Shown here: piece after piece, positions 1,646 to 44,294 of the stretch | Layout: each line of letters begins with the position of its first letter | Position numbering within the stretch: the first letter of the stretch is position 1 | NCBI GenBank assembly: GCA_000018565.1 | Contig: CP000875.1 | Span: 5,843,199-5,907,198, forward strand | Direction of reading: 5' to 3' | Length of the DNA stretch: 64,000 nt | DNA from: Herpetosiphon aurantiacus DSM 785 | GTDB taxonomy: Bacteria > Chloroflexota > Chloroflexia > Chloroflexales > Herpetosiphonaceae | Translations under genes and position numbers: made by a program | Notes under the pieces: generated by a model | What the model was told of the DNA's origin: nothing | The model's input: only the letters and a program-made list of their open reading frames with translations | Databases searched by the model: none

Positions 1646-1664
1646 TGGAAATGTCCTCCTTGAC

Positions 1665-1850
1665 AGAAAATCAAAAGGCAAAAGTCAAAAGGCAAAATGA
1701 CACTGAAAATCAAAGGGCAAAAGTCAAAAGGCAAAATGGCTATGATTAGTAGATCTATTTTTGGCTTCTTACTTCTGCCGCAATGAAAATCAAAGAGCCA
1801 TCTTCATTCAGTAATCGTACTTTTTGACTTTTTACTTCTGCCTTTTGCCT

Positions 1851-4624: not shown

Positions 4625-4800
4625 AAGTCAAAGTAAATCAAAAGTCAGAAATCAAAAGGCAAAAGGACAAAGGAAGCAGGATTCAGGGATTAGCGGCTAG
4701 GTTTAATGCCGAGGCGCAGAGATTGAATGATGAAATTGAACCACGAAGGGCGCAAAGAACCGCTAAGATTCATTATTTCGTGTTCTGCGTGGCTCAACAT
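4625..4800. repeat. Composite intergenic repeat (GTCAAAAGGC type plus CCACGAAG type)
   Basis: The 265-bp gap between the hydrolase gene and sucC has no gene. Its left part (about 4625-4672) is a copy of the GTCAAAAGGCAAAA-type repeat. Its right part contains 'CCACGAAGGGCGCAAAGAACC' split over 4741-4761 and the complementary 'TTCGTGTTCTGCGTGG' near 4778-4793, a copy of the CACGAAG-type repeat found elsewhere in the window. Confidence 0.65.
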
Positions 4801-11149: not shown

Positions 11150-11300
11150 TTAACCACGAAGGGCAGATGGTTGAGCGCGGTTCCCCCTCGCCTCGCGTGC
11201 GGGAGAGGGGGCTAGGGGGTGAGGGCATGAACATCGACTGGGCATCCCACCCAACCCTTGTTAAAACCTACTTTTGAAAGGTTAGGGAGTGAGGGTAATA
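11150..11300. repeat. Dispersed CCCTCACCCC-type intergenic element
   Basis: Begins with 'CCACGAAGGGC', then carries 'GGTTCCCCCTCGCCTCGCG' and 'GGGAGAGGGGGCTAGGGGG' followed by TGAGGGCAT (to about 11228). A second half has 'TAAAACCTACTTTTGAAAGG' and ends 'GTGAGGGTA'. Closely similar blocks occur at 21974-22274, 35196-35308 and 44070-44294. No open reading frame is associated. Confidence 0.75.
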
Positions 11301-21914: not shown

Positions 21915-21973
21915 AATGTTAAAAATCTTAGAGTTTTGTTGTAATGATTCAATGGGTTGATAACCAGTTCTAC

Positions 21974-22274
21974 TATGCCCTCACCCCCTAGCCCCCTCCT
22001 TACAAGGGTAGGTTTTTAACAAGCAAATCACCACCCTTCCGTCCCGCCTCAAGGCGGGAGACGCAGGGGGCTTTAATCCCCCTGCACCCCCTCAAGGGCA
22101 ATCAAGGCTATCATCCATGCATCGATGAACCAATCTATCGGTGGTTCGTAGCAGAAACCTACCCTTGTACGCTAGCCCTTCTCCCGCCCGCGAGGCGAGG
22201 GGGAATCCCGTGATCATGAAGCTTGGCACGCCCCTCGTCCGCCGCAGTGGGAGAGGGGTTAGGGTGAGGGCATA
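21974..22274. repeat. 301-bp MITE-like element with terminal inverted repeats
   Basis: The ends read TATGCCCTCACCCC and GGGTGAGGGCATA, i.e. terminal inverted repeats. Inside are 'GGGTAGGTTTTTAAC' with its inverted partner 'AAACCTACCC'. A GC-rich block 'CACCACCCTTCCGTCCCGCC' through 'CCCCCTGCACCCCCT' (about 22031-22095) recurs alone at 37651-37737. No ORF and no clear target duplication. This fills the gap between uvrA and the phosphatase gene. Confidence 0.75.
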
Positions 22275-22284
22275 CTATTAACTA

Positions 22285-22749
22285 TTACAGTTTTGTTGCG
22301 ACAATTTCATCAAGCAAAGCATTACAGGCAGTGTGCAACATCGCATAGACTTCTTCAAAATTGCCAGTATACCAAGGGTCTGGCACATCGCGGCCTTTGA
22401 CTCCGTTGGGAATATAATCAAGCATCAAGCGTACCTCAGCCCCGTTTGAGCCTAAAACCGCCTGCATATCATGCCGATTTTGGGTATCCATCGCGATCAA
22501 ATAATCAAAATTCTGTTGATCAATTTTGCCAAATTGGCGGCCCCGATGGCTCAAGCTAATGCCATTATGGCGCAAAATGCGCATAGTTCCGTGGTGCGGA
22601 TCATCGCCAATATGATAATGGCTCGTGCCCGCCGAATCGACTTCGATCGCATGACTAAGCTTTCGTTGCTCGACCAAGTGGCGCATAATGCCCTCAGCCA
22701 TTGGCGAACGACAAATATTGCCTAAACAAACAAATAAGACCCGAACCAT
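22285..22749 (-). CDS. Low-molecular-weight protein-tyrosine phosphatase
   Basis: Cytoplasmic phosphatase of 154 residues. The P-loop 'VCLGNICRSP' gives nucleophile Cys8 and Arg14, and 'GRDVPDPWYTGNFEEVY' supplies the general-acid Asp. Family members dephosphorylate tyrosine kinases of capsule synthesis, or arsenate-like substrates. No partner kinase is adjacent. The start is the ATG at 22747-22749, 5 nt after AAGGAG; the GTG at 22755 overlaps the ribosome site and is less likely. Confidence 0.93.
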   Translation of the reverse strand: MVRVLFVCLGNICRSPMAEGIMRHLVEQRKLSHAIEVDSAGTSHYHIGDDPHHGTMRILRHNGISLSHRGRQFGKIDQQNFDYLIAMDTQNRHDMQAVLGSNGAEVRLMLDYIPNGVKGRDVPDPWYTGNFEEVYAMLHTACNALLDEIVATKL

Positions 22750-24498: not shown

Positions 24499-24644
24499 TT
24501 TTGATCCACGAAGGACACGAAGCGCACGAAGAGAGTAGGCTCTAGGCTATGGACTATTGGCTATCAACGATCAGTGATTTCTAAAATTATTTCGTTAGCC
24601 TAGAGCCATGTTTCGTGTCCTTCGTGCTCTTCGTGGATCAAAAA
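24499..24644. repeat. CACGAAG-type inverted repeat element, nested arms
   Basis: Outer arms: TTTTGATCCACGAAGGACAC and CGTGCTCTTCGTGGATCAAAA-type complement. Inner arms: GGCTCTAGGCTA and TAGCCTAGAGCC, a perfect 12-bp pair. The whole 146-bp stretch can fold back on itself. It separates the FG-GAP gene from the convergent aldo/keto reductase gene. Confidence 0.7.
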
Positions 24645-35046: not shown

Positions 35047-35195
35047 TCGTTTAATCCTTACGAGCCATAAAGGGCGGAAACCGCGAAGCTGAGGCTATCG
35101 GCTTTTGGCTATACTGATCTTAAGTTTCTCATCGATGCCCAATAGCCCTCTGCTCTATGTGTAATGGTTTATGAGGTTAAAAACTGTTCTCTCCT

Positions 35196-35308
35196 TCCCT
35201 CACCCCAGCCCCTCGCCCACTGCGGCAGGCGAGGGGAGTCCCAATCATCATGATGGAGCGGTTCCCCCTCGCCTGCTGGGCGGGAGAGGGGGCAGGGGGT
35301 GAGGGCAT
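35196..35308. repeat. CCCTCACCCC-type palindromic element, short copy
   Basis: Starts TCCCTCACCCC and ends GGGGTGAGGGCAT, with an internal 'CAATCATCATGATGGAGCGG'. It is the compact form of the elements at 21974-22274 and 44070-44294. The remainder of the 35047-35411 gap is non-coding, with a degenerate CGAAG-type word near 35070 and no other feature seen. Confidence 0.75.
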
Positions 35309-35411
35309 GCGGGCCGTTGTTAATCCAGTGAACCTTACATCTATGTTCTTTGCTCTGATTACAATACCGTAGTTTGCTAGCTCGTGTGGTTGCAGATGCT
35401 TAACCGCCTGT

Positions 35412-37650: not shown

Positions 37651-37737
37651 ATGATCACCACCCATCCGCCCCACCTCAAGGCGGGGAACGCAGGGTGTTT
37701 TCATCCCCCTGCACCCCCTAAATGACAATAAATGGAG
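37651..37737. repeat. 'CACCACCC...CCTGCACCCCCT' repeat
   Basis: Shares order and most bases with 22031-22095 inside the 301-bp element: CACCACCC, a CCGCC-CTCAAGGCGG hairpin, then 'TCCCCCTGCACCCCCT'. Here it is alone, so it is a repeat family of its own that has also landed inside or beside the other element. The rest of the 37524-37832 gap has no gene. Confidence 0.65.
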
Positions 37738-44069: not shown

Positions 44070-44294
44070 CCCTCACCCCGTCGCCTTTCAAAGTAGGTTT
44101 TAAGTTCCCTCACCCCCGACCCCTCTCCCACTGCGGTGGGAGAGGGGAGATCCAATGATCATGATCGCAGGCTTCCCTCTCGCCTCGCGGGCGGGACAGG
44201 GGGCTAGGGGGTGAGGGAATGAACATCGACGGCGAATTCCACCCAATCTTAAAAACCTACCCTTGAAAAGAGAGGGGTTGGGGATGAGGCATAC
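44070..44294. repeat. CCCTCACCCC-type element, long copy with nested inverted arms
   Basis: Outer words CCCTCACCCC and GGGGATGAGG, next CTTTCAAAGTAGGTTTTAA against AAAAACCTACCCTTGAAAAG, and inner TTCCCTCACCCCC against GGGGGTGAGGGAA, all in inverted order. It also has the 'ATGATCATGATCG' centre. It fills the 44045-44373 gap, and no gene was seen there. Confidence 0.75.

What the first reader, a model, noticed from the sequence alone, without database searches (positions are those of the whole stretch)
21974..22274. MITE-like family with CCCTCACCCC termini, four copies in 64 kb
Copies lie at 11150-11300, 21974-22274, 35196-35308 and 44070-44294, all intergenic. They share inverted terminal words, the nested AAACCTAC/GTAGGTTT arms and a central ATGATCATGA word, but no ORF. 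They are dense enough to expect hundreds per genome. They could be moved in trans by a transposase elsewhere, or act as transcript 3' structures.
Basis: seen in the sequence. Interest (0 to 1): 0.5.

Follow-up and report, generated by a model that had tools for sequence, protein, structure and literature searches.

The report
Triplex-motif pairs carried by bacterial MITEs
Hundreds of short hairpin repeats in this Herpetosiphon-like genome are pairs of a widespread DNA motif known for forming triple helices, and many of them sit inside small jumping elements with clear insertion scars, which suggests one way this puzzling motif spreads.

Summary
The four repeats are real and belong to a family of hundreds. 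CCCTCACCCC occurs 617 times in the genome, the reversed control word 3 times. The shared core is two inverted copies of the known BoxC/'TM' intrastrand-triplex motif (Holder 2015; passages). In 61 of 82 sampled core pairs a longer terminal-repeat word lies outside the core on at least one side. P units (TGTAATGGTT...) have 6-bp target duplications: 64 units from five genomes, match 0.727, permuted maximum 0.542. The element at the finding's coordinates is a P unit (21940-22289) with a Q unit nested in it. Four relatives lack it; in G001 the join is seamless; G003 cannot be judged. An IS481-type insertion sequence with P ends exists in two related species; only distant homologues were found here. 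So the MITE reading holds for P and Q units, but its boundaries were wrong: CCCTCACCCC is cargo, not the end. Triplex formation here, the Q transposase and the near-absence of the motif in two relatives remain open. New variant of a known kind.

The parts
21940..22289 (.). P unit (350 bp): ends TGTAATGATTCA...TTAACTATTACA; holds a triplex-motif pair and a nested Q unit
   Evidence: absent in G001, G002, G004, G005; G003 undetermined (flanks on two contigs)
21933..21939 (.). left copy of target duplication GTTTTGT
   Evidence: 7 of 7
22290..22296 (.). right copy of target duplication GTTTTGT; one copy in the G001 empty site
21978..21998 (+). left part of the first triplex-motif arm, CCCTCACCCCCTAGCCCCCTC
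21999..22171 (.). Q unit (173 bp) with X cargo, inserted in the first triplex-motif arm; decayed 11-bp duplication (7 of 11)
   Evidence: as L112 2300-2472
22172..22270 (.). rest of the first arm, spacer with GATCATGA, second triplex-motif arm ending GGGTGAGGG
35160..35339 (.). P unit (180 bp), right end slightly decayed; triplex-motif pair 35197-35305
   Evidence: read by eye; TCTATG at 35154-35159 and 35340-35345; left end also
44085..44270 (.). Q unit (186 bp) with triplex-motif pair 44107-44217; no clean 11-bp duplication here
   Evidence: read by eye
44070..44084 (.). remnant of an outer triplex-motif arm left of the Q unit
   Evidence: read by eye
44271..44289 (.). remnant of an outer triplex-motif arm right of the Q unit
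   Evidence: read by eye
11183..11280 (.). truncated Q unit: one triplex-motif arm (11183-11225) and the Q tail with AAACCTAC
   Evidence: read by eye
37654..37732 (.). X module without a triplex-motif pair beside it (85% to 22027-22105)

Best explanation
These are miniature inverted-repeat transposable elements of two kinds, with unrelated ends, that carry the same cargo. Cargo: two inverted copies of the BoxC/TM intrastrand-triplex motif (C-arm, loop, G-arm, spacer, mirror-image G-rich third strand), or a second G-rich module X. P chassis: ends TGTAATGGTTYATNNNNTTRRCAAC, 6-bp duplication of mostly NNTANN targets, ends shared with an IS481-type insertion sequence found in two related species; inferred to have been moved in trans by that transposase. 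Q chassis: ends CTTWCAAGGGTAGGTTKTTAA, 11-bp duplication, often inserted inside triplex-motif arms, which makes the nested composites; its transposase was not found. Shown: ends, duplications, P-unit empty sites, nesting, the IS481-type partner in relatives. Inferred: trans-mobilisation, triplex formation in this organism, and that P copies in this genome are now immobile because no P-ended transposase was found.
For: Terminal repeats: 57 of 60 P-end model hits in the 1.664-Mb sample lie beside a core word. P, Q or both labels flank 61 of 82 core pairs (PP 18, P- 16, Q- 13, QQ 11, PQ 3, none 21); random flanks are labelled P in 1.1% and Q in 0.2%. Duplications: P, 6 bp, 64 units from five genomes (G000 30, G002 11, G003 10, G005 7, G004 6), 0.727 against permuted mean 0.471 and maximum 0.542 of 300, 19 perfect, 43 with at least 5 of 6; no other length from 2 to 12 leaves its permuted range. 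Q, 11 bp, 29 units, 0.677 against 0.326 and 0.461, 8 perfect. Empty sites: 21 of the 64 P units had both flanks in another genome's held DNA; three insertions have a clean empty site there. The unit at G000 C1:6157979-6158146, also filled in G003, is absent in G001 with flanks overlapping by exactly 6 nt, GCTACA; the window unit is absent in G001 (-7); the G003 unit in L281 is absent in G000 (-6, left flank only 78% identical) and G001 (-5). Partner: insertion sequences with P ends in G004 (L240) and G005 (L232); the two halves in L240 match IS481 model NF033577 at E 1.2e-15 and 2.6e-32. Cargo identity: 149 arm+spacer+third-strand strings in the sample, 142 with a hairpin, reversed control 0; same plan as the E. 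coli TM in PMC4666352.
Against: 21 of 82 core pairs show neither P nor Q. The core pattern occurs in 28 of 41 related genomes but exact P ends only in one genus (6 of 82 genomes of the order), so P does not explain the motif's spread in general. This genome has only distant IS481 homologues (29-32% identity). P targets often lie in CATAGA/TCTATG/CTATAG arrays, which inflate duplication matches (permutation only partly corrects); the window unit fits 7 and one other 8 bases better than 6. For Q, lengths 3, 5, 10, 12 and 15 also slightly pass their permuted maxima. In G001, the closest relative, the family is nearly absent (4 against 353 pattern matches) although a unit shared by G000 and G003 should predate the G000-G001 split (support 87). 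Of 38 word clusters in a 467-kb stretch, 5 had both flanks in the 400 kb of G001 held; only the window site was a clean empty site, one was nearly so, three held other sequence, one of these with a motif-arm remnant at the same right border. No empty site was shown for a Q unit. Five inverted motif pairs of E. coli K-12 show no convincing flanking repeats (best 10-12 of 14).
Confidence: 0.85

Rival explanations
1. REPIN/BIME-type family: paired REP hairpins moved by a RAYT tyrosine transposase.
For: Architecture (two hairpins in inverted orientation) and copy number fit; RAYT-like genes occur elsewhere in the order.
Against: No NF047646 match at the threshold in G000, G002 or G005, which are rich in the family; weak ones only in G001, G003, G004. 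The single Y1_Tnp gene found in G000 has an in-frame TGA, lies beside a TnpB-like ORF and has no core word near it. Of 30 RAYT-search loci of relatives, 10 hold a one-mismatch word within about 1.5 kb; the two of these that I looked at are not motif arms, the other eight were not looked at. Target duplications are not expected for this class (recalled).
Confidence: 0.04
2. The triplex-motif pair is itself the mobile or propagated unit (by an unknown transposase, or by replication slippage or template switching at the triplex); P and Q units picked it up secondarily.
For: The core occurs without P or Q in 21 of 82 pairs. The exact 23-mer arm is in at least 116 stretches across many phyla, beside other flanking repeats in Nostoc, Chloroflexus islandicus and Fimbriimonadales. 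P units in some species carry X instead.
Against: The clean empty sites found are at P ends, not at the core's own boundary; duplications at the core boundary itself were not tested systematically.
Confidence: 0.25
3. Static regulatory structures: transcription terminators or mRNA 3' stabilisers.
For: Strong folding of one core (DNA parameters, -40.7 kcal/mol, z -5.7). Of 73 placed core pairs, 20 lie between convergent genes (27% against 18% of intergenic bases) and 10 between divergent genes (14% against 24%).
Against: 43 of 73 (59%) lie between tandem genes, as in the background (58%). Presence differs between close relatives at the same intergenic sites.
Confidence: 0.06
4. Hot spots of rearrangement rather than insertions: presence differences reflect intergenic turnover.
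For: TM loci are reported as unstable in E. coli (PMC4666352, abstract and passages). Three of five G001 sites carry other sequence. Alignments of four relatives stop at window about 11165, beside a copy.
Against: 6 of 25 G000-G001 breakpoints (24%) are within 200-500 bp of a motif cluster against control means of 15-18%, inside the control range. Duplications of fixed length need insertion.
Confidence: 0.08

Closest known systems
BoxC / PIT / 'TM' intrastrand triplex motif (Holder et al. 2015, PMC4666352: abstract, found passages and section 15 seen)
   Same: Same sequence plan: CCCTCTCCC-loop-GGGAGAGGG-spacer-GGGGTGAGGG; intergenic, many genomes, inverted pairs at five E. coli sites.
   Different: Longer arms here (GGGAGAGGGG(G) with GGGG(G)TGAGGG). 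In four of five E. coli pairs the third strands face inward; here they face outward. That paper reports no association with mobile elements or transposase remnants; here many pairs lie in units with terminal repeats and duplications. Herpetosiphon and Chloroflexi are not named in its main text; its supplements were not seen.
IS481 family insertion sequences and their MITEs
   Same: P ends; partner insertion sequence with HTH and rve_3 halves matching NF033577; 6-bp duplication.
   Different: The partner's frame is split at an A8 run with a stop just after, in both copies seen; neither half reaches the curated cut-off alone; the MITE cargo is a triplex-motif pair.
REPINs / BIMEs
   Same: Paired inverted hairpins at high copy number between genes.
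   Different: No matching RAYT found; 6- or 11-bp duplications; long terminal repeats outside the hairpins.
Unassigned MITE chassis Q (11-bp duplication)
   Same: Terminal repeats, one duplication length, small size.
   Different: No transposase found, so not assigned to an IS family. Families with about 11-bp duplications, such as parts of IS4, are a recalled lead only.

Membership tests
MITE (P units) | terminal inverted repeats at fixed ends | tested here: met
   (exact P ends in 6 of 82 genomes, reversed control 0)
MITE (P units) | target-site duplication of fixed length | tested here: met
   6 bp; window unit and one other fit 7 and 8 better
MITE (P units) | empty sites in relatives | tested here: met
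   21 of 64 units testable; three insertions with clean empty sites, the others filled, replaced by other sequence or unclear
MITE (P units) | autonomous element with matching ends | tested here: met
   G004 L240 and G005 L232; no close homologue at the threshold in G000-G003
MITE (P units) | mobilisation in trans shown | not testable with these tools
   needs an assay
MITE (Q units) | terminal repeats and duplication of one length | tested here: met
   11 bp, 8 of 29 perfect
MITE (Q units) | empty sites in relatives | not tested
   only P units were put through the flank comparison
MITE (Q units) | autonomous element with matching ends | tested here: inconclusive
   52 exact Q ends, 30 loci fetched; pairing up to 2.5 kb was run on the 22 from other genomes and found a unit in 9, all short with core or X
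BoxC/TM motif | hairpin plus mirror-symmetric third strand | tested here: met
   142 of 149 arms with at least 80% hairpin match; inner G-run lengths correlate r 0.74, partly because two arm types exist
BoxC/TM motif | forms a triplex | not testable with these tools
   reported for E. coli sequences in PMC4666352
REPIN | RAYT partner in the genome | tested here: not met
IS481 family (partner) | NF033577 over curated cut-off | tested here: not met
   57.8 and 112.5 bits for two halves of a split frame; cut-off 224

The most novel reading that the evidence does not exclude
The BoxC/TM triplex-motif pair is a phylum-crossing passenger that repeatedly becomes the cargo of unrelated MITEs. Two chassis in Herpetosiphon are supported by duplications (6 and 11 bp); a Nostoc chassis with CATTGGTGTCAACTTAA ends and apparent 9-bp duplications, and others in Chloroflexus and Fimbriimonadales, are indicated. 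The folded triplex or hairpin may help non-autonomous units transpose or replicate, or may survive because it is tolerated between genes. This would answer how a motif found in hundreds of genomes without known mobility spreads.
Probability: 0.35. Interest if true: 0.78.

Novelty: new variant of a known kind. Interest (0 to 1): 0.6.

Why it matters
[quoted passage not shown] The study of it that I found reported no link to mobile elements and left its spread open. Units with the motif as cargo, measured duplications, empty sites and an insertion-sequence partner make that question testable. They also explain nested composite repeats in this genus. The pattern between related species (353 against 4 and 1 pattern matches) offers a natural comparison for what tolerates or purges such structures.

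Tried and rejected
RAYT/REPIN partner: not supported. Known RNA family: Rfam at gathering thresholds gives only two tRNAs in the window. Loss of palindrome-cleaving SbcCD as the reason for presence or absence: rejected at presence level, SbcD is over the cut-off in 6 of 6 genomes; SbcC was not searched. Rearrangement breakpoints enriched near the motif: not significant, 25 breakpoints. A first duplication test with 19 P units gave the 6-bp signal and read 7 of 7 (window) and 8 of 8 (L057) as exceptions. Common origin of the P units at the same place in G000 L052 and G002 L239/L284 is not secure: L239's closest unit is another G000 copy. The place in G004 L203 (X cargo) and G005 L227 (triplex-motif pair) could be cargo exchange or two insertions into one target array. 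Terminal repeats around E. coli K-12 motif pairs: none convincing at five sites. Flank repeats of at least 14/16 around the 23-mer: 13 of 112 places against 4 of 224 permuted pairs, Fisher p 0.0002; this includes a Herpetosiphon place and repeats that may be simple arrays, so it is only a hint. Rows not in the P and Q counts: locus L288 and the named Herpetosiphon loci were left out of the set, and copies seen twice in overlapping loci were counted once. Papers: beside PMC4666352 I saw found passages of PMC3368417, PMC3733652 and PMC6210107, and only listings of others. Literature searches; in the rows listed I saw no paper linking BoxC/TM to a MITE or IS481; the lists were capped and subscription journals are mostly not held.

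Full report
OBSERVATION. The word CCCTCACCCC, up to one mismatch, has 10 matches in the window against 2.04 expected, with 0 of 100 shuffles reaching 10. In the whole genome (G000, 6,785,430 bases, 3 contigs) the exact word occurs 309+308 times against 2+1 for the reversed word. G005 contig C22 and the named H. llansteffanensis CA052B contig NZ_PUBZ01000022.1 have the same length, 144,400, which supports the genus. A sample of 1.664 Mb (plus the window) gave 190 clusters of words at up to one mismatch, 107 of them with two or more words, and 82 inverted core pairs. By simple proportion that is about 310 pairs in the chromosome (inference).

ANATOMY OF THE CORE. The core is two arms in inverted orientation with the G-rich tails outermost. 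Each arm is a C-arm, a loop, a G-arm (GGGAGAGGGG or GGGAGAGGGGG mostly), a spacer and a mirror-image third strand (GGGG(G)TGAGGG). The sample holds 149 such arm strings; 142 have a hairpin of at least 80% match, and the reversed motif occurs 0 times. The inner G-run lengths of G-arm and third strand agree (4 with 4 in 57, 5 with 5 in 51 of 149, r 0.74), but two arm types exist, so this is not independent covariation. A search of papers for the word led to Holder et al. 2015 (PMC4666352; I saw the abstract, found passages and section 15). Its E. coli 'TM' or BoxC motif (for example CCCTCTCCC-loop-GGGAGAGGG-spacer-GGGGTGAGGG, 23 copies, five sites as inverted pairs) has the same plan. That paper reports triplex formation in vitro, more than 260 genomes with many copies, high instability of the sites, and no association with transposons or transposase remnants.

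THE MOBILE UNITS. Outside the core two kinds of ends recur. P ends: TGTAATGGTTYATNNNNTTRRCAAC, about 35 nt from the core; 57 of 60 model hits in the sample lie beside a core word. P units have 6-bp duplications: over 64 units from five genomes the match is 0.727 against a permuted mean of 0.471 and maximum of 0.542, with 19 perfect and 43 at five or more of six; every other length from 2 to 12 stays within its permuted range. Of those 43 targets all have T at the third and 41 A at the fourth base, so NNTANN. Q units have 11-bp duplications: 29 units from five genomes, 0.677 against 0.326 and maximum 0.461, 8 perfect; lengths 3, 5, 10, 12 and 15 pass their permuted maxima slightly. Q units often sit inside triplex-motif arms, with duplications such as CTAGCCCCCTC and CACCCCCTGAC, and this produces the nested composites.

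THE FOUR WINDOW COPIES. 21940-22289 is a P unit; a Q unit with X cargo (21999-22171) interrupts its first arm; GTTTTGT flanks it on both sides, that is 7 bp, an exception to the 6-bp rule. 35160-35339 is a P unit with TCTATG on both sides (read by eye). 44085-44270 is a Q unit with a motif pair between remnants of an outer arm, without a clean duplication (read by eye). 11183-11280 is a truncated Q unit with one arm (read by eye).

EMPTY SITES. The window unit is absent in G001, G002, G004 and G005; in G001 (about 96% identity) the flanks join with one GTTTTGT copy; in G003 the two flanks lie on different contigs, so its state is unknown. Of the 64 P units, 21 had both flanks in another genome's held DNA. 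The unit at G000 C1:6157979-6158146 is present at the same place in G003, and in G001 the flanks overlap by exactly six bases, GCTACA; G002, G004 and G005 lack it but have diverged there. The G003 unit in L281 is absent in G000 and G001 (gaps -6 and -5; the left flank in G000 is only 78% identical). The remaining testable units are filled in the other genome, replaced by other intergenic sequence, or unclear. Among 38 word clusters in a 467-kb stretch, 5 had both flanks in the 400 kb of G001 held: the window site clean, one nearly clean, three with other sequence, one of which keeps a motif-arm remnant at the same right border. Q units were not tested for empty sites.

THE PARTNER. Exact P ends were found in one genus only: 6 of 82 genomes of the order, control 0. 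In G004, G005 and G002 they also enclose X cargo, and in three loci (L214, L219, L217) something longer. L240 (G004, 638-1627, left end read by eye) and L232 (G005, 660-1626) hold an insertion sequence with P ends. In L240 its two reading frames match the first and last parts of the IS481 transposase model (E 1.2e-15 and 2.6e-32; neither reaches the curated cut-off alone) and carry HTH and rve_3 domains. In both copies an A8 run is followed by a stop where the frames meet; L232 is broken by at least one further TGA. G000 has only distant homologues (29-32% identity), and G001-G003 none at the threshold. So the P copies in this genome are probably no longer mobile (inference). Q's transposase was not found: one search listed 52 exact ends and fetched 30 loci; pairing was run on the 22 of these from other genomes and found a unit in 9, all short.

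UNEXPLAINED. By a pattern for one arm G000 has 353, G003 299, G005 251 and G002 216 matches, but G001 has 4 and G004 has 1. The tree from 8,500 aligned positions joins G000 with G001 (support 87) and G002 with G004 (90). A unit shared by G000 and G003 but cleanly absent in G001 therefore needs precise loss, gene exchange or a wrong tree. SbcD is present in all six genomes and does not separate them.

OTHER LINEAGES. In Nostoc, four loci hold the motif pair inside 184-185-bp units with GTGTCAACTTAA ends. Reading the flanks by eye with ends CATTGGTGTCAAC, two show identical 9-bp repeats (AACATTGTT, ACAGCTGTG), one seven of nine, and one none; the two repeats are themselves nearly palindromic. 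Three plasmid records, of Tolypothrix and Microchaete, hold 94% of this unit at 87% identity. Chloroflexus islandicus and Fimbriimonadales loci show other flanking inverted repeats. Over 112 places of the 23-mer, 13 have a flank repeat of at least 14/16 against 4 of 224 permuted pairs. Five E. coli K-12 pairs show none that is convincing, and four of the five have the opposite arm order. The general claim is therefore open.

VERDICT. Not a single MITE family with CCCTCACCCC ends, but two MITE chassis carrying a known triplex motif. The parts are known kinds; I did not see the combination, with duplications, empty sites and a partner insertion sequence, in the rows of the paper searches made.

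Noticed in passing
G001 and G004 (same genus), whole genomes: Near-absence of the triplex-motif arm (4 and 1 pattern matches against 216-353 in the other four species), not explained by SbcD presence.
   Followed up: partly
L240 386-1627 (G004) and L232 660-1626 (G005): IS481-type insertion sequence whose reading frame is split at an A8 run followed by a stop, which could be programmed frameshifting; in L240 it lies right next to a P unit with X cargo.
   Followed up: partly
L298, L312, L339, L356 (Nostoc): Motif pairs inside 184-185-bp units with CATTGGTGTCAACTTAA ends and apparent 9-bp duplications in two of four loci; similar units on Tolypothrix and Microchaete plasmids.
   Followed up: partly
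window 37654-37732 and 22027-22105: X module (GAGGGGGT-GCAGGGGG-ATTAAAG-CCCCCTGC plus a CCGCC hairpin), with matches in all six species including G001 and G004; it also reads as a possible intrastrand triplex.
   Followed up: partly
window about 11165: Alignments of G001, G002, G003 and G004 all stop here, next to the truncated copy at 11183; possibly a rearrangement junction in this lineage.
   Followed up: partly
G004 L203 and G005 L227: P units at the same place with different cargo (X and motif pair): cargo exchange or repeated insertion in a target array.
   Followed up: partly
window 1663-1740, 4630-4682, 24499-24643: Other repeat families: CAAAAGGCAAAAGTC arrays and GATCCACGAAGGACACGAAG inverted repeats.
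   Followed up: no
NC_000913.3 five inverted TM pairs (L437-L441): In four of five E. coli pairs the third strands face inward, the opposite of this genome; two share the spacer end GGCCTGTTCC and a third is similar in reverse complement (by eye).
   Followed up: no
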